From: an uncultured Clostridia bacterium
GTDB taxonomy: Bacteria > Bacillota > Clostridia > Christensenellales > Borkfalkiaceae
DNA length: 64,000 nt
Assembly (NCBI GenBank): GCA_944376295.1
Contig: CALWCE010000002.1
Location: 1 to 64,000 of the forward strand
Direction of reading: 5' to 3'
Made by a program: the position numbers and the translations under genes
The notes under the pieces: generated by a model
Database searches by the model: none
Seen by the model: only the letters and a program-made list of their open reading frames with translations
Told to the model about the DNA's origin: nothing
Part shown: positions 1,917-47,390 of the stretch, in pieces
How the letters are laid out: every line of letters begins with the position of its first letter
Numbering within the stretch: the stretch's first letter is position 1

Positions 1917-1967
1917 AAACAAACGTTCTTATTTTGCTTGACAAACGTTTGTTCCGTGTGCTATAAT
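1917..1967 (+). promoter_or_regulatory. Strong promoter with two LexA-like boxes
   Basis: -35 TTGACA (1938-1943), 18-bp spacer, -10 TATAAT (1962-1967). Two sites resemble the Gram-positive SOS box GAACRNRYGTTC. AAACAAACGTTC (1917-1928) has one mismatch. On the other strand, GAACAAACGTTT (1954-1943) has one mismatch and lies between -35 and -10. A LexA-like or phage-type repressor bound there would block the promoter. Which repressor acts is inference. Confidence 0.6.
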
Positions 1968-1973
1968 GCCCTT

Positions 1974-2470
1974 GTATCGGTTAAGATGCACGCAAAGTGC
2001 CCGTGTCGGTGAAAGAAACGAGCGGGCAAGTTCCGTTCCCATTGCTTTATGAAGCTTGCAACTCCTCGGCAGATATGGCTTTAACGGGCTTGCCCGGCCG
2101 GCGGCGGATCGGTCGCGAAGGCGGCATTTTGCAACACAAAAAACGGTACCCGAGCAAGCTGTGTCTCCCGACACTGCATCTCGATTCACTTGCAGCGGCT
2201 GTTTTTAGGTAGCCGAGGCTTGCCACGACGGGTTACAAAGAATGGCTGTACGCTTCCGCTGTGACTCCCTCATAGGGATAGCGAACGACGGTCATCACTG
2301 TTTATAACGAGCGGCTTTTCAGCCGCTTATGGTGGAGGTTCTCGCTTCCACCGATGCTTTTGCTGTCCTCTTTAGAGGCGCGCAGAGGCCGTTATAAGCA
2401 TACCGTTTTTTGGACAAATGATAGAACCCAAGTCCATGGAAAGGTAACGCTTTCTGTGGACTTTTTGTTT
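1974..2470 (+). ncRNA. Large structured non-coding RNA, family unknown
   Basis: About 500 nt between a strong promoter and an intrinsic terminator, with no convincing reading frame (longest frames lack ribosome binding sites and known motifs). The 5' end (CGGT 1978-1981, ATGC 1986-1989) pairs with GCATACCG (2398-2405) just before the terminator, closing the molecule. Inside it, TTATAACG (2302-2309) pairs with CGTTATAA (2390-2397) to close a junction. That junction carries hairpins AGCGGC/GCCGCT (2310-2327), GGTGGA/TCCACC (2331-2352) and CCTC/GAGG (2367-2378). Further hairpins are GTGTC-TCCC-GACAC (2161-2174) and TCCCT/AGGGA (2264-2276). Size, closed ends and a relaxase neighbour recall the large ornate RNAs of phages and plasmids (ROOL, GOLLD). 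I could not match it to any of them, nor to tmRNA, RNase P or group II introns. Confidence 0.7.
2431..2470 (+). terminator. Terminator of the large RNA
   Basis: Stem AGTCCA-GAAAG with CTTTC-TGGACT, symmetric TG internal mismatches, 6-nt loop, then TTTTTGTTT. Confidence 0.85.
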
Positions 2471-2542
2471 TATTTGAGGCTATCTTCCCGCCCTCTTCGG
2501 CGCGGGTCAGAGATAGAGATAACGACAAACAGGAGGAAAGTT

Positions 2543-2658
2543 ATGCGCAACCAAACGACGATCAGACCGCCATAATTATGAAAACCAAACGGAAAGTAAC
2601 CGTCGTAAGCCGGCAAGCAAATCACAATCGAGCTTTTGAGTTCGACGAAGAAGTATAG
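2543..2658 (+). CDS. Two very short reading frames before oriT (doubtful)
   Basis: ATG at 2543 with a strong AGGAGGAAAG site encodes only 10 residues (MRNQTTIRPP) and stops at 2575. A second ATG at 2578 opens 26 residues (MKTKRKVTVVSRQ...FDEEV) ending at 2658 inside the oriT hairpin. The tight two-base spacing suggests translational coupling. Either they are leader peptides, or they are the remains of a small mobilisation gene truncated when the oriT region was joined. No family recognised. Confidence 0.3.
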
Positions 2659-2693
2659 CCCACTATACTTCGTTCCGAAGTTTAGTGGGCTCT
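2650..2693 (+). other. oriT: oriT-like inverted repeats for MobV relaxase
   Basis: Two overlapping inverted repeats. GAAGTATAG/CTATACTTC has a CCCA loop (2650-2671). A 16-nt arm pair, AGCCCACTATACTTCG with CGAAGTTTAGTGGGCT, has a TTC loop and one mismatch (2657-2691). The order hairpin, then TTAGTGGGCT, parallels the pMV158-type oriT, where a hairpin is followed by TAGTGTG and the nick before TTATAC. The inferred nick is within TAGTGGG/CT at about 2689-2690. The site sits directly before the relaxase, as in that family. Confidence 0.6.
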
Positions 2694-2731: not shown

Positions 2732-3832
2732 ATAAGTTTTTTAGTTTGTCACATGGAGAAGTATCACAAGACGGACATTGCGCCCGTCGAGCGGGAGAAC
2801 GAGCGCGACGAAAATTATCGGGCGGACAACCCGCAGATAGACCCCACGCGCACACGAGAGAATTACAACCTTATCAAACAGCAGAGGTCATACACGCAAT
2901 TTATCAATGATAAGATCGCGGCGCTTGACTTGCCTACGAAAGTGCGCAAGGATGCCGTGCTGATGTGTTCCTTCGTGGTCGGTTCGGACAGGGAGTTTTT
3001 CGGCAATTTATCGGAAGAAGAGCAGCAGCAATTCTTTGTGGACTGCACTCGCTTCTTTGCGGAGCGGTACGGCGAGAACAACATCATCTCGGCAATCGTA
3101 CATATGGACGAAACGACACCGCACCTACATTTGAATCTCGTTCCGATTGCAGACGGCAGGCTATCTGCAAAAACGCTGTTTGGCCGAAAGGAGTTGCAGA
3201 GTTTGCAGACAGACTTTCATGCCGCCGTTGGTAAGAAATGGAGCTTGCAACGCGGACGGGAAGGCAGCCAAGCAAAGCACCTCTCCACGGCGGAGTTCAA
3301 GGCGAAGAAGATCGTCGAGCAGGCGAACGGGGAAGCCGCCCACAGATTGAGGAGTGCAAGGCTTCATGCGGACGATATTGTCGCGCTGGCAAACTCTCAG
3401 GCAGATCACAAGCTGCAGATGGCGCAGTCTCAGGCGGATGAGCTTGTCGCCGAGGCGCAATCGCAGGCGGACAATGCCAAAGCGCAGGCGCAGGAATATC
3501 TGGACGGCGTGATCCAATCGGTGGAGAATGAAAAGGCAAAACCCATTCCAAAGCGGAGGCGTCAAGCCGAGGAAGAAATTGCCTTACTTCGCACAGAGAA
3601 CGAGGCTTTGCGACAGTCGAAGAGCATTGCTGATCGCGACCGCAAGGACTTATTTGAGCAGCTTCAAAAGGCAGAGAAACTTGGTAAAGGAAAAGAGACC
3701 GCCTTTAAGATGGTCGGCGATATGCTCTCCGCATATCCCGAAGAATTTGATACGCTGCTGAGGAAGTCTCAGGCAAAGAAATCAGCAGCCTCATCGTTCA
3801 AATCACACGGCTTTGATCGTGGCGGCAAGTAA
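2732..3832 (+). CDS. mobV: MobV-family relaxase (Pre/Mob plasmid mobilisation protein)
   Basis: Nicks oriT and pilots the cut strand during conjugative mobilisation. The N-terminus SFLVCHMEK matches the family opening (typically MSxxxxHMEK). The metal-binding triad motif is HMDETTPHLHLNLVP at about residues 129-143. After about residue 185 the protein is an alanine-rich coiled coil with heptad-like repeats (SQADHKLQ, SQADELVAEAQSQAD), which usually mediates dimerisation. The start is odd. The family start and a perfect AAGGAGG 7 nt upstream point to codon ATA at 2732; the first ATG in frame is 2753, inside the conserved HMEK, and a TTG at 2636 would translate through oriT. About 366 residues, within the family range. 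No type IV secretion genes are present, so it would depend on a helper element. Confidence 0.9.
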   Translation: MSFLVCHMEKYHKTDIAPVERENERDENYRADNPQIDPTRTRENYNLIKQQRSYTQFINDKIAALDLPTKVRKDAVLMCSFVVGSDREFFGNLSEEEQQQFFVDCTRFFAERYGENNIISAIVHMDETTPHLHLNLVPIADGRLSAKTLFGRKELQSLQTDFHAAVGKKWSLQRGREGSQAKHLSTAEFKAKKIVEQANGEAAHRLRSARLHADDIVALANSQADHKLQMAQSQADELVAEAQSQADNAKAQAQEYLDGVIQSVENEKAKPIPKRRRQAEEEIALLRTENEALRQSKSIADRDRKDLFEQLQKAEKLGKGKETAFKMVGDMLSAYPEEFDTLLRKSQAKKSAASSFKSHGFDRGGK

Positions 3833-4074: not shown

Positions 4075-4110
4075 CGGCGGGCGCTTCAAACAAGCGCCCG
4101 CCGTTATTTT
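4075..4110 (+). terminator. Terminator after the mobilisation genes
   Basis: Perfect 12-bp stem CGGCGGGCGCTT/AAGCGCCCGCCG, 5-nt loop, then TTATTTT. It lies at the convergent end of the next minus-strand gene. Confidence 0.9.
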
Positions 4111-5248
4111 ATGATTTAAGAGTAATTATAATTAACTTTTCATTTGTGGGGCTTCTTGTTGCATGAAAATCCGTCCAATCATCCAACCCGGCTATCGCTT
4201 CGATATGTCGCTCCATCGTTTGCTTCATCCGGGTGCTTTTTCTTTTATTTAAAATAAAACTATCTAATTGACTAAAATCAATTTGTATTTCCTTACTCTT
4301 AACACTAATATAAACATGATCTAGAATCGTGCTCTGCAATAAGTATTCGTGCGGGTTTTCTTTTTTTGAGAATCGTTTTGTGCATTCAATTGTATCAACC
4401 AAAGATAATAACAATAGTAAAAAGTTCGTTCTTGTTATTCTTGCTGGGGATATGCTTGTTAACCCTTCAAGTCCCGAAGCCACATAATCTTTATTATCCC
4501 TAGGATTTTCCTTAAATATATTATGAGACGCTGCAATTATACATGACACTTTTTGAATTTTAGTGATTACATCACTTGGCCCATAATTAGCTTTTCCATT
4601 TAATGATACGATATATCTGCAATATTTATTGAATGCTTTGCATCCACCAACAATCCCATGGTCAGAGACATCATCAAACATATTCTCACTATCAGATGAA
4701 ATATTTTTTATCATCTTTGCATGTTTTTCCTGAATATAACGATAGTAATCTTTAATTTCTTTATAGGTATATGAAAAAAAGCATTCAAAGTCAGGAACGC
4801 GTGACAAATCATTCAAACATGTTAATTCGACGACATTATATGTATCTGTTAACAAATTATAAGCTTTTGTTATGCTCTCGAGAGCCAACATTTGTCTTAT
4901 CTCTCGGCAAAAATATCCATAATCATGGATTATTGCTGTTTGAAGCCACAATCTGGACTCATACAAGTATGCAAAACCAGTTAAGTTATTACCAGCTTTT
5001 GCAAAATTGCTTAGGCCTATTCCAAGTATCCAAGTAACAATAATGTGACTAGCTCGATGTCGATTGATAGAAATAGCCTCCATAGGAAATTCCAGAACTG
5101 ATGAAATAAGCTCTATACATTTCTTGTCGTCATTTATTAGATCTATAAATTTAGTATCTTTAATGATATTACATGTATTAAAATCTAATTGCTCCATTGA
5201 TAGCAACTGCTTATATATACCTTCTAAATAATCAAATAAGCTGTCCAT
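4109..5248 (-). CDS. HD-domain-like protein of unknown function, AT-rich
   Basis: 379 residues, much more AT-rich than its surroundings, start ATG 5248 with GGGGTG six bases upstream. I do not recognise the family, but residues spaced as in HD phosphohydrolases are visible: H68, H108-D109 (AIIHDYGYF), H197 (SDHGIVGG), H242 (AASHNIF) and D285 (LLSLVDTIE). HD enzymes hydrolyse phosphate esters of nucleotides, including signalling nucleotides, using one or two metals. No membrane segment or signal peptide. It is a lone gene between a mobilisation module and a tRNA, a common place for cargo such as defence genes; that role is inference. Alternative: an inactive regulatory HD fold. Confidence 0.6.
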   Translation of the reverse strand: MDSLFDYLEGIYKQLLSMEQLDFNTCNIIKDTKFIDLINDDKKCIELISSVLEFPMEAISINRHRASHIIVTWILGIGLSNFAKAGNNLTGFAYLYESRLWLQTAIIHDYGYFCREIRQMLALESITKAYNLLTDTYNVVELTCLNDLSRVPDFECFFSYTYKEIKDYYRYIQEKHAKMIKNISSDSENMFDDVSDHGIVGGCKAFNKYCRYIVSLNGKANYGPSDVITKIQKVSCIIAASHNIFKENPRDNKDYVASGLEGLTSISPARITRTNFLLLLLSLVDTIECTKRFSKKENPHEYLLQSTILDHVYISVKSKEIQIDFSQLDSFILNKRKSTRMKQTMERHIEAIAGLDDWTDFHATRSPTNEKLIIITLKS

Positions 5249-5591: not shown

Positions 5592-5777
5592 AAATAAAAA
5601 TGACATCCGCCTGTGCCGCAAACCGATGAAGGTAGACCCGCTTCTCGCAGGTGGGTGCGCGGCGGCTCGGCATCTGACTTTCCGTAGCAACAGACCTTGC
5701 ATAGCCGCGCCGACAGGCGCTCCCGAATAAAAAATGTGGATCACGCATTTACCGGCTTCCGTACACCGCAGGTGTCA
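5592..5777 (-). ncRNA. ssrS: Candidate 6S RNA
   Basis: Stand-alone unit of about 180 nt. Promoter TTGCAA (5811-5806), 17 bp, TATAAT (5788-5783). The 5' ATGACACC pairs with the 3' GGATGTCAT directly before a TTTTTATTT tail. The middle forms a long interrupted rod with a strong inner helix (GCGCGGCT with AGCCG-CGCGC) flanked by a mostly unpaired stretch containing ATCCACATTTTTTATTCGGG. Length, closing helix, central bubble and lone promoter fit 6S RNA, which traps RNA polymerase holoenzyme in stationary phase. The assignment rests on shape and remembered consensus only. Confidence 0.55.
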
Positions 5778-39999: not shown

Positions 40000-40260
40000 G
40001 GTGACTCCTTCCGTCACGGCTGCGCCGTGCCACCTCCCTCGGGGAGGGAGGCAAGGGGAAAAAGTAAAATTTTGCCGCACCTCACCTTCACGCAAGACTC
40101 GCTGCGCGATCTCTTCGGGAAGTGTTTACTCCCTCCGTCTCACCATCGGCATACGCCGAATGATGAGCCACCTCCCCGAAGAGGAGGCTAAATTGTGGAA
40201 TTTAGCAAATCAGGAAAACGCCTGCTCACCCCTCAAGAAGGCGCCTAAAATAAGGAAAAA
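40000..40260. repeat. Palindromic repeat cluster
   Basis: No gene. CTTCCGTCACGGCTGCGCCGTG unit with CCTCCCTCGGGGAGGGAGG (40004-40054) and a CTCCCTCCGTCTCACCATCGG unit (40129-40192) nearly identical to 24083-24165, with the GAAAACGCCTGCTCACCCCT tail. Confidence 0.85.
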
Positions 40261-40263
40261 TTC

Positions 40264-40312
40264 AGAAAAATTTTGCCGCGGCGGTCCGTACGGACCGCCG
40301 CGGCGTCTTTCT
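40264..40312 (-). terminator. Terminator after mrp
   Basis: GCCGCGGCGGTCC-GTAC-GGACCGCCGCGGC followed by AAAATTTTT on the minus strand. Confidence 0.75.
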
Positions 40313-40317
40313 GAAGA

Positions 40318-41169
40318 TCATGCTTCGGGGGTGGCGCGGACGATCTCGCGCGAGGAGGAAATGACGGAGAAGAGCTCCTTCAAAGCGTCGGTATCGGCGA
40401 ATTCGATCATGCCCTCGTCGGCAAGCTCGGCATACTTCGGGTCGATGGGAAGGCGCGCCGCCGCGGGGAACTTGTGCTCCATGGCAAGCGCCGCCGCCTT
40501 GCTCGCCCCGAAGGGCTCGATCGTTCTGCCGCAGCCGGGGCAGGTGAGATAGCTCATGTTCTCTACAAGTCCCAAGACGGGGACCTTCATCATATCCGCC
40601 ATGTTGACCGCCTTTTTGACGATCATTTCGACAAGGTCCTGCGGGGTGGTGACGATGACGACGCCGCTTAACGGGATGCTCTGGAAGACGGTGAGCGGCA
40701 CGTCGCCCGTTCCCGGGGGCATGTCGATGAACATGATATCCACATCGTCCCACACGACGTCCGTCCAGAACTGCTGCGCCGCGCCCGCGATGAGGGTGCC
40801 GCGCCAGATGACGGGGTCGTCTTCATGCTCCAAAAGCGAGTTCATCGACATCATTTGGATGCCGCCCCTGGAGACGAGGGGGTAGATCTCCCCTTCCGTG
40901 CCGCGCGCTCTTTCATGCACGCCGAACATTTTGGGGATGGAAGGGCCCGTGATGTCGGCATCGAGCACCGCCGTGCGCATGCCGAGCTTGTTTGCGTGCG
41001 CAGCTAAAAGCGCCGTGACGAGCGATTTGCCCACGCCGCCCTTGCCGCTTGCGACGGCGACGACGCGCTTTACTTTTGCGTCGGGGTGAAGGGGCTTGAT
41101 GAAGGACTGCTTATCGCGCGAGGAGCAGTTGCTGCTGCAGGAGGAGCAGTCGTGCGTACATTCTGCCAT
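40318..41169 (-). CDS. mrp: Mrp/NBP35-type iron-sulfur carrier ATPase
   Basis: 283 residues. Cysteine-rich N-terminus CTHDCSSCSSNC, deviant Walker A ASGKGGVGKS at about 42, MPPGTGDVPLT, and the cluster-binding CPGCG at about 215. Assembles and delivers Fe-S clusters to apoproteins. Single gene with its own terminator. Confidence 0.93.
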   Translation of the reverse strand: MAECTHDCSSCSSNCSSRDKQSFIKPLHPDAKVKRVVAVASGKGGVGKSLVTALLAAHANKLGMRTAVLDADITGPSIPKMFGVHERARGTEGEIYPLVSRGGIQMMSMNSLLEHEDDPVIWRGTLIAGAAQQFWTDVVWDDVDIMFIDMPPGTGDVPLTVFQSIPLSGVVIVTTPQDLVEMIVKKAVNMADMMKVPVLGLVENMSYLTCPGCGRTIEPFGASKAAALAMEHKFPAAARLPIDPKYAELADEGMIEFADTDALKELFSVISSSREIVRATPEA

Positions 41170-41231
41170 AGATCTTTGCTTCCTTATCGTTTTTCCCGCT
41201 CATTGTACTCCCTTTTCGGCGCAAAGTCAAA

Positions 41232-43007
41232 TCATTTGCGCATATTGAGGGCGTAATAGCGGCCGCGGCGCGCCATGAGCTCTTCGTGCGAGCCCTCTTC
41301 GGCGATGCCTTTATCGGAGATGTAGAGGATGCGGTCTGCCTTGCGGATGGTGGAGAGGCGGTGGGCGACGATGAACGCCGTCTTGCCCGCGAGGATGGTA
41401 TCGAGCGCGCCTTGGATCAAAAGCTCCGTCTCCGAATCGATGGCGCTCGTCGCTTCGTCCAGAATGATGATGCGGGGATTTTTGAGCACGATGCGCGCGA
41501 AGGAGATGAGCTGCTTTTCCCCCGCCGAGAGCCCTTCGCCGCGCTCGCCGAGCTGCGAGAAAAAGCCTTCGGGGAAGCGGGCGGCGACGCGGTCGGCATA
41601 GATGCGCTTGGCGGCCATAATGCACTCCTCGTCCGTCGCTTCGGGAGTGCCGTAGCGGATGTTATCTAAAATGCTGCCGCGGAAGAGGAAGGGCTCCTGC
41701 ATGAGGACGCCGATCTCCTTGCGCAGAGAGTGCAGCGTGACGTCCTTGACGTCGTGCCCGTCGACGGTGACGCTCCCCTCCCCCACGTCGTAAAAGCGCG
41801 TGAGAAGGTTGATGACCGTCGTTTTGCCTGCGCCCGTGGGGCCGACGAGGGCGATCTTTTCGCCCGCACGGACGTGAAGATCGAAATGTTCGAGGACGTG
41901 GATGCCCGGCTCGTAGCCGAAGGTGACGTCGTTGAAGTCCACCTTCCCTTCGATGTCGTGCAGGACGGCGGCGTCCTTTTTATCGGCGATGGAGACAGGG
42001 GTGTCGATGGTCTCGTAGATGCGCTCTAAATTCGCCGAGACCTGCGCGAGCTGCTGCAAAATGGCGGTGATCTGCAAAAGCGGCTCCGAACACAGCCCCA
42101 TGTAGAGGAGGAAGGCGATGACGGTGCCTGCGATGGCGGTATCGCCCCCCGACAAAAGGGCGAAGGCGACGGCGTAGAGGGCGAGCGTGCCCGCGTTCCA
42201 GAAAAATTCCGAGACGGGCGCGTTGAGCTCGTTGCGGCGCACGATCTTCATCCACGTCCTGAAGCTGTCTTCCTGTAAGTCGTAATAGACCTTTTGGTTA
42301 TAGTCGGAGCGGTTGTAGTTCTTGATGACCTTCTCGCCCATGATGGACTCGACGATGAAGGCGTTGCGGTTGCTGTTCTTGGCGCGGTGGGTGCGGAAGA
42401 GCTTTCTCACCGCCGACTTGACGAGCAGGACGCACACGGTGAGCGGGATGAGCGCCGCATAGACGACGGCGGTCAAAAGCGGACTGATGCAGAGCATGAG
42501 CACGGTGCCGACGATGATCTTGAGGACGCTGACGATGGCATCGAGGAGATAGGACGTGAAGAAGTCGGCGAGCTCGTTGATGTACTCCGTGACGCGGATG
42601 GAGATCTTGCCTGCGGGGCGGGTGTCGTAATACTCGAACGGAAGCTCCTGCAAGTGCGAGAAGATCTCGCGGCGCAAATCGGTGATGATGCCGTGCCCCA
42701 CCGTGCCCATGACGGAGCGGTAGAAGTAGGGAAGGAGCGCCGTGAAAAGCCCGATGGCGGCGAGCCCCGCCATATACAAAACGAAGGTGCGGAGACGGCC
42801 TTCTTCCATCGGGATGACCTCGTTGATGACCGTGCGGATGATGGCGGGCGGGAGAAGGGAGAGCACCGAGGAGAAGATGAGAAGGAAGAGCGCCGTCAAA
42901 AACAGCTTTTTGTAGGGCGCGATGCGCTTTAAGATGCGGCCGAGGTACTTGACGTCGACTTTGTCCGCCTTGACCTCTTCATCCATAAAATAGGTGTTGC
43001 GCTTCAC
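41232..43007 (-). CDS. ABC exporter half-transporter, subunit B
   Basis: 591 residues: six membrane helices (about 35-320), then the ATPase with Walker A GPTGAGKTT, Walker B IIILDEATSAID (catalytic Glu present) and a degenerate signature LSAGEKQL in place of LSGGQ. That is the mirror image of its partner, so the pair should form one canonical and one degenerate ATP site. Overlaps the partner by 4 bp. Substrate unknown; drug or lipid export is usual. Confidence 0.93.
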   Translation of the reverse strand: MKRNTYFMDEEVKADKVDVKYLGRILKRIAPYKKLFLTALFLLIFSSVLSLLPPAIIRTVINEVIPMEEGRLRTFVLYMAGLAAIGLFTALLPYFYRSVMGTVGHGIITDLRREIFSHLQELPFEYYDTRPAGKISIRVTEYINELADFFTSYLLDAIVSVLKIIVGTVLMLCISPLLTAVVYAALIPLTVCVLLVKSAVRKLFRTHRAKNSNRNAFIVESIMGEKVIKNYNRSDYNQKVYYDLQEDSFRTWMKIVRRNELNAPVSEFFWNAGTLALYAVAFALLSGGDTAIAGTVIAFLLYMGLCSEPLLQITAILQQLAQVSANLERIYETIDTPVSIADKKDAAVLHDIEGKVDFNDVTFGYEPGIHVLEHFDLHVRAGEKIALVGPTGAGKTTVINLLTRFYDVGEGSVTVDGHDVKDVTLHSLRKEIGVLMQEPFLFRGSILDNIRYGTPEATDEECIMAAKRIYADRVAARFPEGFFSQLGERGEGLSAGEKQLISFARIVLKNPRIIILDEATSAIDSETELLIQGALDTILAGKTAFIVAHRLSTIRKADRILYISDKGIAEEGSHEELMARRGRYYALNMRK

Positions 43008-44824
43008 AGTTCCGCCCTCCCGTAAGAAGAATCGTCGAGCTGTCCGTCGCTCGTCTGCAGGTGATAGACCGCCGCGAACGCGCCGTTCTTTGCGATGAGC
43101 TCTTCCGCCGTGCCCCGCTCGATGATCTCGCCGTCGCGGAGATAGATTATTTCGTCGCAGTCGAGGACGGAGGAGACGCGGTGCGCGGCGATGACGAGCG
43201 TGCTGTCGGGGCAGTGCTCCTTGATGGAAGTGAGCACGCGGCGCTCCGTCGCCATGTCGAGCGCGGAGGAAGCGTCGTCGAGGACGAGGACGGGCGCGCC
43301 CTTGATGAGCGCCCGCGCGATGGAGAGGCGCTGTTTCTGCCCGCCCGAAAGCCCCACGCCGCGCTCGCCCACCACCGTCTCGTAGCCCGCTTCGAGCTTG
43401 CCGATGAACTGGTCTGCCTGCGCGATCTGCGTGGCGCGCACGACTTCCTCTTCGGGGACGTCGGGATGGGCGAAGGCGATGTTGGCGTCCACCGTGTTGG
43501 AGAAGAGGAAGACGTCCTGGAAGACGTAGGCGAACTCCGAACGGAGCGCTTCCAGAGAATAGTCGCGGATGTCGGTGCCGTCGAGGGTGATATCCCCCGC
43601 CGTCACGTCGTAGATGCGGCTCAGGCTCTTCAAAAGCACCGATTTTCCGCTGCCCGTGCCCCCCATGACGCCCAGCTTCTTGCCGTAGGGAAGATCGAGC
43701 GTGATGTGCTTTAAGACGGGCTTTTCGCCGAGGGTCAGAGAGACGTCCTCAAAGCGGAAGTGCGGCTTTTGCGGCGCGGTACGGAGGGCGCGGCTGTCGT
43801 GGATGGCGCCCTCTTCGGTGAGGAACTTTTTGAGGCGCGCGCCCGAGACGAGCTGATTCTGCATCATGTAGAAGGAGCGGCTGATCTGCATGATGTGCGA
43901 GATGATCTTGGTGACGTACGTCGTCGCCGCCGTGAGCGCGCCGAGGGCGATGCTGCCGCTCAACACGAGCGCGAACGCCACGCAGACGGTGCCCACATAC
44001 CCCACCTGCTGGCAGAGCGTGAAAATGCTGTTGTACTTGGCGGAGAGCTTGGCTTCCTGCTTGTTGAGGGCATAGACGCGCTCGTTGTCGCGGTCGAATT
44101 TGTGCATCTCCGTCTCTTCGCCCGCGAAGGAGCGCACGATGCGCACGGCGTCGATGTTCTCCTGCACCGTCAAATTGATGGCGGAATAGCTCTCGCGGAT
44201 CTCCTTGAAGAGCACTTTTGCCTGCTTTAAATAGCGCACGAGCGCCACCGTGAAGAAGGGCGCGACGGCGACGGGGAGAAAGAGGAGCCGCCAGTCGAGC
44301 ATGGTGAGCGTGACGACGGAGAGCACGATGACGATGACCGAATCGAAGATATTTAAGATCATGCGCGAATACAGCTCCTTGAAGGAGATGGTATCGCGGT
44401 TCATCGTGGTGAGGAGCTCGCCCACGTTGTAGCGGGAGAGCGTTTCGCCGTCGAGCTCCAAAAGCTTGGCATATGTTTCGGCGCGGAGGGTGCACTCCAT
44501 GGCGACGCCGCACCACTGGAAGGTGACGTTCTTCGCATAGAGGAGCACGATGCGGACGAGGAAGACGCCCGCAAAAATGAGGACAAGGTGCAAAAAGAGC
44601 TCCCCCGAAGCGGGCGCGCCGAGGCGACCGTCGAAGAGAAACCCGATGAAGCCCTCGTCGACGGGCGAGGAAGGGTCGTAGGCGATCACATAGTCGATGA
44701 TGCCCGCAGACAGCAAGGGCAGCAGCAGATCGCACAGAATAGCGACAAGGGAAAAGACTTTGACGAGGATGTCGAGCGGAAGATACTTTTTCCAGTACTT
44801 CCAGCCGAAACGGAAGATGTCCAT
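43004..44824 (-). CDS. ABC exporter half-transporter, subunit A
   Basis: 606 residues from ATG 44824 (AGAGG upstream). Six membrane helices, Walker A GGTGSGKSV, canonical signature LSGGQKQRL, but Walker B VLVLDDASSALD, with Asp for the catalytic Glu. Matches the asymmetric heterodimers such as TM287/288. First gene of the pair. Confidence 0.93.
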   Translation of the reverse strand: MDIFRFGWKYWKKYLPLDILVKVFSLVAILCDLLLPLLSAGIIDYVIAYDPSSPVDEGFIGFLFDGRLGAPASGELFLHLVLIFAGVFLVRIVLLYAKNVTFQWCGVAMECTLRAETYAKLLELDGETLSRYNVGELLTTMNRDTISFKELYSRMILNIFDSVIVIVLSVVTLTMLDWRLLFLPVAVAPFFTVALVRYLKQAKVLFKEIRESYSAINLTVQENIDAVRIVRSFAGEETEMHKFDRDNERVYALNKQEAKLSAKYNSIFTLCQQVGYVGTVCVAFALVLSGSIALGALTAATTYVTKIISHIMQISRSFYMMQNQLVSGARLKKFLTEEGAIHDSRALRTAPQKPHFRFEDVSLTLGEKPVLKHITLDLPYGKKLGVMGGTGSGKSVLLKSLSRIYDVTAGDITLDGTDIRDYSLEALRSEFAYVFQDVFLFSNTVDANIAFAHPDVPEEEVVRATQIAQADQFIGKLEAGYETVVGERGVGLSGGQKQRLSIARALIKGAPVLVLDDASSALDMATERRVLTSIKEHCPDSTLVIAAHRVSSVLDCDEIIYLRDGEIIERGTAEELIAKNGAFAAVYHLQTSDGQLDDSSYGRAEL

Positions 44825-44875
44825 AAAGAACCTCTTGGTATTTTTCGGGGGGGATGGTTTTTGGGGTGAGGGCGG

Positions 44876-45000
44876 GTCGTACTCCTTCCGCCAGCCTTTC
44901 GGGATCCACAACCCCTCCGTCTTGCCTTCGGCAAGCCACCTCCCCTTACACAGGGGAGGCTATATTGAGGCGACTCCCTCAAAGAGGGAGCCAAGGGGGA
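44876..45000. repeat. Palindromic repeat cluster
   Basis: CTTCCGCCAGCC and CCTCCGTCTTGCCTTCGGCAAG units, CCTCCCC-TTACACA-GGGGAGG hairpin (44938-44959) and CTCCCTC-AAA-GAGGGAG (44974-44990). No gene. Confidence 0.85.
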
Positions 45001-45155
45001 AAGGGTGGCGCGGATCCGAAAATTTGCCTCATTCTATCATGTTTCGGCAAAGCCTTCAAGCGTTCTTTATGATTATTTTTTATTTTATGTCATGATGAAG
45101 CAAAGCGCGGCGGGGCACTCTTTTCGGAGCGCCCCGCCGCGCAAAATGACCAAAA

Positions 45156-45428
45156 GAAAAAACTGTGAAGCTTTTTTTGTTGCACCACACCGAAGCGGAA
45201 GCGAAGCAGGTAACTAGCGCAAAGCTACCTCATGGCACACGCACCGAACTGTTTAGTGCTGCTGTATCCCTACCCTGACACGGTTCGCAGAGATGCGTTG
45301 CATAAGACCTTGCGATCGACATTCCTTACTCCGCGCAGCCTTCCATGTACTGCACCGAGAAAAGCATTCGGCTCTGCTATAGCGGATTGCAGATACAGGG
45401 CACCGCTAACTCCCCGCCTATCACAGTA
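45156..45428 (-). ncRNA. ffs: Signal recognition particle RNA, large form with Alu domain
   Basis: About 270 nt. The 5' part GGCGGGGAGTTAGCGGTGCC, CTGCAATCCGCTATAGCAGA and GCCGAATGC closely match the Bacillus subtilis SRP RNA Alu domain as I recall it. The S-domain tip carries GTGTCAGG...ACAGCAGCACTAA, the Ffh-binding asymmetric loop region. The 5' ACTGTGA pairs with 3' TCACAGT just before TTTTTT, closing helix 5 and ending transcription. Promoter TTGCCA (45462-45457), 17 bp, TATACT (45439-45434). Targets nascent membrane proteins with Ffh and FtsY. Confidence 0.95.
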
Positions 45429-45504
45429 CGTTCAGTATAGCGCAAATCGCCGCTTTTGGCAAGCGATTTTGTATGAGCCGCATTTTCTTTTTTGCGGGAA
45501 TCCC

Positions 45505-45533
45505 TTGCGCTTTCTTTCAACATGTGCTATACT
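45505..45533 (+). promoter_or_regulatory. Promoter of the leader before the 59-aa gene
   Basis: TTGCGC, 17-bp spacer, TATACT (45528-45533). Faces away from the SRP RNA promoter. Confidence 0.75.
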
Positions 45534-45539
45534 GAGCGT

Positions 45540-45685
45540 GCGATGCTAACTGAATAGTTGACTCCAATGAGGTACGGATCGGCATTTCGTATCTCTACTT
45601 TCTCGCGATCGGGAAGGTTGTACCCGCAATCGGAGATACAAATGCAGGGCGTGTCTCCGTTGGAGCGCGCCCTTTATTTTTTAAG
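45540..45685 (+). promoter_or_regulatory. Structured leader ending in a terminator
   Basis: About 145 nt. A 13-bp helix GCATTT-(C)-GTATCTC with GAGATAC-AAATGC encloses a second hairpin (CGAT-CGGG...CCCG-CA-ATCG). It is followed by terminator GGGCG..TCTCC-GTT-GGAG..CGCCC (45647-45672) and TTTATTTTTT, then AAGGAGG and ATG. The segment CTCCAA at about 45562 can pair with TTGGAG of the terminator, a possible antiterminator. Ligand unknown; could also be a stand-alone small RNA. Confidence 0.55.
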
Positions 45686-45695
45686 GAGGAAAAAA

Positions 45696-45875
45696 ATGGC
45701 AGACAAGATCGCATGGGATGCAGGCGCGGAAGTGACGGCGGAGGACGTTATGGCCTCTTTGAAGCCGCTCTTTGACGAATACCTTTTCGGGACGTGCGGG
45801 CAGCAGGGAGATACCCTCCTCTATACCCTCCCCGACGGCAGGGCGTTTCGCCTCAAAGCGGAACGGATCAAGTGA
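45696..45875 (+). CDS. Small protein of unknown function, 59 aa
   Basis: Perfect AAGGAGG seven bases before the ATG. MADKIAWDAGAEVTAED...GTCGQQGDTLLYTLPDGRAFRL. One or two helices and a short beta hairpin, acidic, one cysteine. No family recognised. Preceded by the terminator-bearing leader and followed by a GC-rich palindrome (45883-45915). Confidence 0.7.
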   Translation: MADKIAWDAGAEVTAEDVMASLKPLFDEYLFGTCGQQGDTLLYTLPDGRAFRLKAERIK

Positions 45876-45928
45876 CTTTTGCGGCGGCGCCCCGTATGAC
45901 GGGGCGCCGCCGCATGATAAAAAAGGGG

Positions 45929-45957
45929 TTGCACTTTTTGAGCGGGTGTGATATAAT
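45929..45957 (+). promoter_or_regulatory. Promoter of the M18 aminopeptidase
   Basis: TTGCAC, 17-bp spacer, TATAAT. Confidence 0.8.
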
Positions 45958-45992
45958 GCTGCGCGGAAAATATTTTACGGAGGCTTTCAGTC

Positions 45993-47390
45993 ATGGCTGA
46001 AAAGAGCGAAGGACAGAAGAAATTCGAAACGCTGTCTTACGAAAGGAAAAACTACTTCGAAGTCGCCCCGAAAGAGGAGCTTGACAAGATGTTCGCCTTT
46101 GCCGAGGGGTATAAAAAGTACCTCAACGACGGCAAGACGGAGCGCGAGGCGTGCGACGCCGCCGTCGCCATCGCAAAGGAACACGGTTTTACCGAATACA
46201 AGTTCGGCGATGCCCTGCATGCGGGCGACAAGAAATATTTTGTCAACCGCGGCAAGAGCGTCGTCGTGTTCCGCGTCGGCAGCAAGAATTTGGAAGAGGA
46301 CGGCTTCCGCATCCTCGCTTCCCACATCGACTGCCCGCGCGTCGATATCAAGCAGGTGCCCCTCTATGAGGACAGCGGCATGTGCTTTTTGAAGACGCAC
46401 TACTACGGCGGCATCAAGAAATATCAGTGGACCGCCATCCCCCTCGCCCTGCACGGCGCCGTCATTTTGAAGGACGGAAAAAAGATCGAGATCAAGGTGG
46501 GCGAGGACGAAAACGACCCCGTCTTCTACATCAACGACCTGCTGCCCCACCTCGCCGCGGAGCAGATGGCGCAGAACGCCGCCAAAGTCATCGAGGGCGA
46601 ACAGCTCAACGTACTCGTCGGCGGGCTCCCCTATGCGGATGAGGACGTGAAGGAAAAAATCAAGCTCACCGTGCTCTCCATCCTCAACGAGAAGTACGGC
46701 ATGTGCGAAGAGGACTTCCTCTCCGCCGAGCTTTCGGCCGTTCCCGCTTTCAAGGCGCGCGACGTCGGCTTCGACCGTGCGCTCATCGGCGCTTACGGCC
46801 ACGACGACCGCGTGTGCTCCTATCCCGCGCTCATGACCGTCGTCGAAAACGAGAGCGAGCACACCGTGCTTGCGATGCTCGTCGACAAGGAAGAGATCGG
46901 CAGCGAGGGCACGACGGGGCTGCAGTGCGAAGTCTATGAGGATCTGATGGAGGAAATTGCCGTTGCCTTCCATGCCAACTTCCGCAAGGTGAAGGCGGCC
47001 TCGAAGTGCCTCTCCGCGGACGTGACGGCGGCATACGACCCCAACTTTGCAAACGCGTACGAAAAGAAGAACGCCGCCATGCTCTCGTGCGGGGCGGGCA
47101 TCTGCAAGTTCACCGGTTCGCGCGGCAAGAGCGGCTCCAACGACGCTTCCGCAGAATTTTTGGGCGAAGTGAGGCAGATGTTCGAAAAAGAGGGCGTCGT
47201 CTGGCAGACGGCGGAACTCGGCAAGGTGGATATCGGCGGCGGCGGGACGGTCGCGAAGTACGTCGCCAACATGAATATCGACACGGTGGATATCGGCGTG
47301 CCCGTCATCTCCATGCACGCGCCGTATGAGGTCATTTCGAAGGCAGACCTTTACAGCAACTACCGCGCGTTCGTTGCGTTCATGAAGTAA
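45993..47390 (+). CDS. apeA: M18 family zinc aminopeptidase
   Basis: 465 residues. Metal-site motifs ASHIDCPRVDIKQ (about 110), VDKEEIGSEGT (about 300) and the C-terminal MHAPYEVISKADL with the last histidine ligand. Cytoplasmic dodecameric enzymes removing N-terminal residues, often acidic ones. TTACGGAGG-type site upstream; own promoter and terminator. Confidence 0.94.
   Translation: MAEKSEGQKKFETLSYERKNYFEVAPKEELDKMFAFAEGYKKYLNDGKTEREACDAAVAIAKEHGFTEYKFGDALHAGDKKYFVNRGKSVVVFRVGSKNLEEDGFRILASHIDCPRVDIKQVPLYEDSGMCFLKTHYYGGIKKYQWTAIPLALHGAVILKDGKKIEIKVGEDENDPVFYINDLLPHLAAEQMAQNAAKVIEGEQLNVLVGGLPYADEDVKEKIKLTVLSILNEKYGMCEEDFLSAELSAVPAFKARDVGFDRALIGAYGHDDRVCSYPALMTVVENESEHTVLAMLVDKEEIGSEGTTGLQCEVYEDLMEEIAVAFHANFRKVKAASKCLSADVTAAYDPNFANAYEKKNAAMLSCGAGICKFTGSRGKSGSNDASAEFLGEVRQMFEKEGVVWQTAELGKVDIGGGGTVAKYVANMNIDTVDIGVPVISMHAPYEVISKADLYSNYRAFVAFMK

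What the first reader, a model, noticed from the sequence alone, without database searches (positions are those of the whole stretch)
1974..2470. Undescribed ~500-nt structured RNA beside a relaxase
A complete transcription unit (consensus promoter, intrinsic terminator) with no credible protein. Its 5' and 3' ends pair, and an 8-bp helix closes a three-hairpin junction near the 3' end. Large ornate RNAs on phages and plasmids (ROOL, GOLLD) share size and setting, but I could not match this sequence to any family I know.
Basis: partly seen in the sequence, partly recalled or inferred. Interest (0 to 1): 0.85.

Follow-up and report, generated by a model that had tools for sequence, protein, structure and literature searches.

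The report
SOS-box RNA heading relaxase operons
A roughly 500-base folded RNA that matches no family in the Rfam catalogue sits between a promoter with a likely DNA-damage switch and a DNA-transfer gene in small mobile elements of uncultured gut-type bacteria, and probably helps decide when that gene is switched on.

Summary
The observation largely holds. Window 1974-2472 encodes a structured RNA with a 12/12 consensus promoter and an intrinsic terminator (T1); no Rfam 15 family matches. Ten copies (the window's and nine homologues) give a 156-pair consensus: 97.7% of cells paired, 22 pairs with compensatory changes; 0 of 500 shuffles reach either value. Two held-out homologues (69-71% identical) keep 135 of 154 and 137 of 153 pairs. 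G-U cells outnumber A-C cells 193 to 10, so plus-strand RNA is the likely functional molecule. A second, divergent RNA type sits at the same place in related elements. The window's genome has five RNAs, each followed by a MobV gene. (2) T1 lies between the only good promoter found and the downstream genes, which may be MobV, MobC plus another relaxase, or DUF6291-MobV. I read the RNA as an SOS-inducible operon leader controlling read-through into the relaxase, working like Tn916 canT but without detectable similarity to it. The mechanism is inferred.

The parts
1917..1928 (+). operator, probable LexA (SOS) box AAACAAACGTTC, 21 bases before the -35
   Evidence: word at -20 to -22 in 34 of 38 RNA promoters and at -10 in one more; shuffle expectation 0.23; same word upstream of 22 of 25 LexA-domain hits, 0.38 expected; position
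1943..1954 (+). second operator-like word AAACGTTTGTTC, from the last base of the -35 into the spacer
   Evidence: in 5 close copies (W, L010, L011, L012, L063)
1938..1967 (+). sigma-70 type promoter TTGACA-18-TATAAT, extended TG
   Evidence: 12/12
1974..2429 (+). structured RNA: 5' domain 1992-2132; long-range helix 2137-2148/2401-2412; middle domains 2149-2232 and 2242-2295; 3' three-hairpin domain 2299-2400 (transcription start inferred from the promoter)
2430..2472 (+). intrinsic terminator T1
   Evidence: helix 21 (one compensatory pair); a terminator-like hairpin before the mini-ORF in 32 of 36 loci with one
2481..2515 (+). hairpin between T1 and the ribosome site of the mini-ORF; similar hairpins seen by eye in homologues
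   Evidence: sequence; no statistical test
2543..2575 (+). mini-ORF MRNQTTIRPP*, possible arrest (leader) peptide
   Evidence: [R/G]PP* mini-ORF in 36 of 54 relaxase loci with enough upstream sequence, 0.3 expected from shuffles
2650..2690 (+). oriT-like inverted repeat (AGTATAGCCCACTATACTT at 2652-2670) overlapping a longer hairpin
   Evidence: repeat found in 51 of 54 testable loci; the name oriT rests on recalled pMV158, not tested
2732..3832 (+). MobV relaxase gene; start codon probably ATA at 2732
   Evidence: Mob_Pre PF01076 E=6.5e-54; NCBIfam MobV; ATA in 53 and ATT in 4 of 57 related loci; PDB 4lvi aligns from the next residue

Best explanation
It is a new family of large structured RNA that forms the leader of the mobilization operon of small, apparently integrated mobile elements. 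SHOWN by sequence: conserved plus-strand RNA structure; consensus promoter; conserved LexA-like operator; intrinsic terminator T1 between this promoter and the relaxase; no better-than-chance promoter between T1 and the mini-ORF in the loci examined; RNAs of these two types ahead of different relaxase operons. INFERRED: LexA holds the promoter down. After DNA damage the promoter fires, and the nascent RNA folds and acts in cis on RNA polymerase (antitermination, as proposed for canT of Tn916) or on T1 itself, so that transcription reads into the RPP* mini-ORF, oriT and the relaxase gene. Stalling on RPP* and the ATA start codon may be further brakes on relaxase synthesis.
For: Structure: 156 pairs, 97.7% of cells paired, 22 pairs with compensatory change, 0/500 shuffles for both, slid controls 2-9 such pairs; held-out L100 137/153 and L101 135/154 pairs, slid controls 53-71; G-U 193 vs A-C 10 cells. 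Promoter matching 11-12 of 12 in 21 of 22 mini-ORF-bearing loci examined, and nothing above shuffles in the 130 bases before the mini-ORF. LexA box. The RNA heads mini-ORF-MobC-PF03432 relaxase in L104 and DUF6291-MobV in L100, where the first ribosome site is 31 bases and the second 113 bases behind the T1 stem and the best promoter match in that gap is 8/12, no better than shuffles. Five RNAs in the own genome, each followed by MobV. Precedent canT: RNA most likely acting in cis, needed for transcription of transfer genes and for conjugation (PMC11658703).
Against: No transcript, termination or induction data. T1 is strong and conserved, which also suits a stand-alone RNA. R1 and R2 find nothing significant in the canT region of Tn925. 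In most loci the operator lies upstream of the -35, not over it, so repression there is not the textbook geometry; L047 and L049 lack it, recA lacks the word, and three of five genome matches to a stricter word do not stand before genes I could recognise as SOS genes. A promoter-like match inside the oriT-like repeat (9/12 at 2642-2669) could drive the relaxase without read-through. Eighteen of 54 testable relaxase loci lack the mini-ORF, and a sixth MobV-like gene of the own genome has no RNA match.
Confidence: 0.5

Rival explanations
1. A stand-alone trans-acting RNA (RNA-only or RNA-protein complex) needed for transfer, like sgm-sRNA of SGI1; the downstream gene is merely its neighbour.
For: Own promoter and conserved terminator; very elaborate structure with near-invariant long-range helices; SGI1 needs a self-encoded RNA encoded next to oriT (PMC9299015).
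Against: In the loci I looked at, complete RNAs lie upstream of and on the same strand as a relaxase operon or its remnant (one relaxase gene cut after about 42 codons, L063); exceptions are L101, whose contig ends too soon, and the weak match L098 with no relaxase. The RNA stands ahead of different relaxase operons (L104, L100), and no independent promoter was found behind T1.
Confidence: 0.28
2. A very large riboswitch or attenuator: a ligand-binding domain switches T1 on and off by alternative pairing.
For: RNA followed directly by an intrinsic terminator ahead of the gene. In the window's RNA type I saw by eye that UGGAC just 5' of T1 could pair with GUCCA of its 5' arm (sequences; no statistical test).
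Against: No Rfam riboswitch family matches; the alternative pairing was not seen in the second RNA type (by eye only).
Confidence: 0.12
3. A DNA-level element: a folded single strand serving as origin or primer site after conjugative transfer, only incidentally transcribed.
For: Next to the oriT-like repeat of a relaxase gene.
Against: G-U cells outnumber A-C cells 193 to 10, the mark of plus-strand RNA (folded single-stranded DNA with G-T pairs is not strictly excluded); conserved promoter, operator and terminator.
Confidence: 0.05

Closest known systems
canT of Tn916 (RNA antiterminator)
   Same: complex RNA of an integrated element (452-base and 341-base fragments active), ahead of terminators and relaxase genes, required for their transcription (PMC11658703: abstract, passages, one section)
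   Different: no significant match of R1 or R2; that it lacks an SOS box, RPP* mini-ORF or T1 directly behind it is recalled, not tested
conAn (ConAn1 protein + conAn2 RNA) of pLS20
   Same: RNA part responsible for antitermination at the start of a conjugation operon of a Gram-positive element (PMC8955417, passages)
   Different: has a protein partner that gives processivity; sequence comparison not done here
sgm-sRNA of SGI1
   Same: self-encoded RNA beside oriT of a mobilizable island, essential for transfer (PMC9299015)
   Different: matured from a primary transcript that can also be an mRNA; complements in trans; atypical relaxase; sequence comparison not done here
ROOL, GOLLD, OLE
   Same: large ornate RNAs (PMC12286853 seen in search listing only); setting on phages and plasmids recalled or from the finding
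   Different: no covariance-model match to them up to E=10

Membership tests
Any Rfam 15 family incl. ROOL, GOLLD, OLE, HEARO, group I/II introns, riboswitches | covariance-model score at gathering cut-off | tested here: not met
   for the window (E up to 10; four chance-level matches to other families); for seven related loci (ten matches, all tRNA)
canT (Tn916) | sequence/structure homology | tested here: not met
   R1 best E 0.3, R2 best E 0.078 in pCF10/Tn925 40000-46400 with filters off; R1 and R2 model only parts of the two RNA types
canT (Tn916) | large RNA in the leader of transfer genes, upstream of a terminator, same strand | tested here: met
canT (Tn916) | processive antitermination in cis | not testable with these tools
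   needs reporters
conAn2 (pLS20) | homology and a ConAn1-type protein partner | not tested
   no sequence comparison was made
SGI1 sgm-sRNA type transfer RNA | required for transfer, works in trans | not testable with these tools
   needs mating assays
LexA/SOS regulon | LexA operator of the GAACN4GTT[C/T] type in the promoter | tested here: met
   relaxed word in 35 of 38 promoters vs 0.23 expected; same word before 22 of 25 LexA-domain hits vs 0.38 expected and, by eye, before a TIGR03916 repair gene
LexA/SOS regulon | LexA binding and induction by DNA damage | not testable with these tools
   needs gel shift and expression data
MobV relaxase | Mob_Pre / MobV profile | tested here: met

The most novel reading that the evidence does not exclude
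A new class of RNA-based gene switch: an SOS-induced, roughly 360-840 nt RNA, modular in the second type, that lets RNA polymerase pass the terminator guarding the relaxase. It would be the first of three stacked brakes (terminator, RPP* arrest peptide, ATA start codon) that keep mobilization silent until DNA damage.
Probability: 0.35. Interest if true: 0.88.

Novelty: new variant of a known kind. Interest (0 to 1): 0.75.

Why it matters
If true, it adds a large structured RNA family to the short list of RNAs that control DNA transfer, and ties the SOS response to mobilization of small elements in uncultured Clostridia-type bacteria through an RNA leader. It would also be a natural system for asking how big RNAs act on RNA polymerase: many homologues, two divergent types and clear operon context make it directly testable in a laboratory Bacillus.

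Tried and rejected
Protein-coding reading of the RNA: rejected. Rfam families, introns, riboswitches, tRNA or tmRNA: none at this place. Public phage or plasmid records: no DNA match for the window's RNA (plasmids, phages) or for one second-type RNA (plasmids). The relaxase has 2043 plasmid records with a match, all under 60% identical; the DNA upstream of those genes was not examined. Relaxase in viral contigs: three stretches matched a pattern, none encodes a relative. Two exact RNA motifs in viral contigs: none. My ideas that the second-type tail resembles a tracrRNA or a box C/D element, and that its U-rich units form triple helices, were by eye, untested and dropped. The apparent RNA 3' part at L024 2259-2545 is an artefact: the profile contained flanking non-RNA sequence from L024. 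G601 (L098) is a weak match without mini-ORF or relaxase, probably chance.

Rows and overlaps. The ten rows of A2 include the window's own RNA, and L016 and L017 are nearly identical. L100 and L101 were found with R1, which models the 5' domain, so that part of the held-out test is not independent. The 38 loci include two contigs counted twice (L102=L060, L103=L026), and L040's promoter lies at its contig end and cannot be tested; without these, 33 of 35 carry the word. One search was given 25 of the 58 relaxase loci (window plus 57), chosen by me for long upstream sequence and signs of an RNA; 22 had a mini-ORF by its regex (L014 ends GPP* and was missed there). In one search, 4 of 58 loci (L021, L023, L035, L036) were too short upstream. 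One search used the 25 best of 34 places; one row (L138) was given L139's coordinates, which shifts the stretch by three bases. R2 was built from 14 of the 17 sources that it matches; L025, L037 and L040 are the others. Shuffles keep single-base content only. One search selects relatives by peptide patterns and is not a census.

Full report
WHERE IT IS. The window lies in a 2.03 Mb genome in 30 contigs. Near relatives of its relaxase gene come from assemblies titled Candidatus Borkfalkia, uncultured Clostridia and some others. The unit reads promoter 1938-1967, RNA from about 1974 (inferred start), T1 stem 2430-2463. After it come a hairpin, a ribosome site, the mini-ORF MRNQTTIRPP* (2543-2575), an oriT-like repeat (2652-2670) and the MobV gene.

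IS IT A REAL RNA? The fold is more stable than all 100 dinucleotide shuffles, z -5.85. Rfam 15 has no family for it. By DNA, 7 of 103 genomes of the genus match at E<=0.001: six, including the own genome with two copies, by a long match, one by 28 bases only. With covariance model R1 (5' domain), 5 of 396 genomes of the order match, from 4 of 142 genera, one in another family; three of the five (own, G389, G253) hold sequences R1 was built from, and G339 (L101) and G349 (L100) are new.

STRUCTURE. RNAalifold on ten copies (72-100% identical in pairs) gives 156 pairs; 22 carry a change on both sides. Of 1540 cells, 97.7% pair. None of 500 shuffles reaches the observed paired percentage, number of compensatory pairs or cells, or covariation score; the count of further pair types is not exceptional (182/500). 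Structures slid by 1-3 columns pair 38-45% of cells and have 2-9 compensatory pairs. Ten of 21 helices hold at least one compensatory pair. The two long-range helices, 2137-2148/2401-2412 and 2299-2309/2390-2400, hardly vary in that set, so they are conserved but not proven by it. In the held-out homologues L100 (71% identical to the window) and L101 (69%), 137 of 153 and 135 of 154 pairs hold, with 13 and 16 compensatory changes against the window, including C-G to U-A in the second helix in L100; slid controls give 53-71 pairs, and 16 and 19 pairs are broken. Both were found by the 5'-domain model, so independence is best for the rest of the RNA.

WHICH STRAND, WHAT CODE. In the paired columns there are 193 G-U cells and 10 A-C cells; 51 pairs mix Watson-Crick with G-U, 7 mix Watson-Crick with A-C. 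A structure acting on the minus strand would give the reverse. No frame is open across the set, and indels against the window are nearly all of 1 or 2 bases.

A SECOND TYPE. Upstream of more distant relaxase genes lie RNAs of 363-842 nt (18 loci, promoter to terminator by pattern) with a consensus promoter, the motifs ACCCGAGC and TATAAGCATACnnTTTTTT or variants, repeated units about 70 nt apart in some, and a different T1. Both motifs also occur in the window's RNA. Whether the two types descend from one RNA is an inference. On its core alignment 4 of 15 predicted pairs show a change on both sides. Model R2 from that core matches 17 of 58 relaxase sources at E<1e-3, 14 of them its own building set, 7 of 396 genomes of the order (G339, G349 and G389 hold building sequences) and 2 of 391 of the class, the own one and a weak one. 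The own genome has three such RNAs besides its two of the window's type. It has six MobV-like genes; each of the five RNAs is followed by one.

OPERON LOGIC. Of 22 mini-ORF-bearing loci examined, 21 have a promoter matching 11-12 of 12 ahead of the RNA; the best promoter-like match in the 130 bases before the mini-ORF never stands out from shuffles (smallest fraction of shuffles as good 0.42). Of 54 testable relaxase loci, 36 have the [R/G]PP* mini-ORF (0.3 expected) and 51 the oriT-like repeat; a terminator-like hairpin precedes the mini-ORF in 32 of those 36. Of 13 RNA loci fetched (four of them, L095, L099, L102 and L103, are contigs already held), 10 have MobV downstream. Of the other three, L104 has the mini-ORF followed by a MobC/NikA-like protein and a PF03432 relaxase (MOBP is my recalled label), L101's contig ends too soon, and L098 has neither. 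In L100 the first ribosome site follows 31 bases after the T1 stem and a second after 113 bases, ahead of a DUF6291 reading frame and then MobV; the best promoter match between is 8/12, no better than shuffles. These arrangements suit a leader that serves whatever relaxase operon stands behind it.

SOS BOX. The word [AG]AACN4GTT[CT] occurs in the promoter stretch of 35 of 38 RNA loci (0.23 expected), 34 of them at -20 to -22 from the -35 and one at -10; it is absent in L047, L049 and the contig-end case L040. The window and four close relatives have a second word in the spacer. The host lexA (TIGR00498) has TAGAACATTTGTTTGC before it. Of the 25 best LexA-domain hits in related genomes, 22 have the word upstream, 0.38 expected. 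By eye, the same word stands before a DNA repair radical-SAM gene (TIGR03916). Against: recA has no such word in the stretch fetched, and of five genome matches to a stricter word (one in the backwards control), one is an RNA promoter, one the repair gene, and three are not before genes I recognise as SOS genes. LexA boxes are given as GAACN4GTTC for B. subtilis and predicted as GAACN4GTTT or GTTC in C. difficile (PMC4234289, passages). LexA control is thus well supported by sequence and unproven by experiment. Loci are related, so counts are not independent events.

MECHANISM. Shown: promoter, operator, RNA structure, T1 between promoter and genes. Inferred: derepression by DNA damage and RNA-dependent read-through. 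[quoted passage not shown]). R1 and R2 find nothing significant in the corresponding region of Tn925 on pCF10, so I do not call this a canT. The SGI1 sgm-sRNA (PMC9299015: abstract and first part of the discussion) is the precedent for the stand-alone reading.

IN PRINT? Searches for RNA with relaxase/MobV, ornate RNAs, relaxase with leader peptide and antitermination, conAn and SOS with mobilizable elements and RNA listed nothing that, by title and start of abstract, describes this RNA. Only openly licensed papers are in that library.

START CODON. At the position before the conserved S[Y/F]LVCHMEK, 53 of 57 loci have ATA and 4 ATT, most with a GGAGG-like site a few bases upstream; 26 of 56 have an in-frame stop within the few codons before it (counted from its output). 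MobM (4lvi) aligns from the next residue. This looks like a conserved non-ATG start.

Noticed in passing
2732-2734; 57 related loci: The relaxase seems to start at ATA (53 of 57 loci) or ATT (4 of 57) behind a good ribosome site; gene callers limited to ATG/GTG/TTG would misplace the start.
   Followed up: partly
2543-2575: Mini-ORF MxxQTTIRPP* with ribosome site; an [R/G]PP* mini-ORF occurs in 36 of 54 testable relaxase loci, 0.3 expected from shuffles; a Pro-Pro-stop ending suggests an arrest peptide.
   Followed up: partly
L067/L068 (G059 contig 7): Two direct copies of the RNA about 13 kb apart flank a region with a serine-recombinase-like ORF and ORFs that look like a restriction-modification system (read by eye, no family search); the first copy is followed by a relaxase gene cut after about 42 codons.
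   Followed up: partly
L024 2287-4270 (also L095): The 5' half of a window-type RNA lies between two 92.6% copies of an 890-bp chromosomal stretch, with a second-type RNA and relaxase further on.
   Followed up: partly
1-1569: Minus-strand gene with many collagen-like GXY repeats in the left flank (by eye).
   Followed up: no
1650-1740: Long inverted repeat (GCGCTCAAATT and CAACAAGTAGG arms) between the collagen-like gene and the element (by eye).
   Followed up: no
4109-5248: 379-aa ORF without Pfam match lies between the relaxase unit and tRNA-Glu; in L010, L011 and L013 the unit is next to the tRNA-Glu region without it.
   Followed up: no
5600-5777 and 45163-45426: 6S RNA and large SRP RNA genes.
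   Followed up: no
L022, L032, L065, L066 upstream of the relaxase: Insertions of about 100 bp that look like small hairpin elements sit inside the second-type RNA (by eye).
   Followed up: no
L100 4740-4760: The DUF6291 reading frame ahead of MobV may also begin at an ATA codon behind a GGAGGG site (by eye).
   Followed up: no
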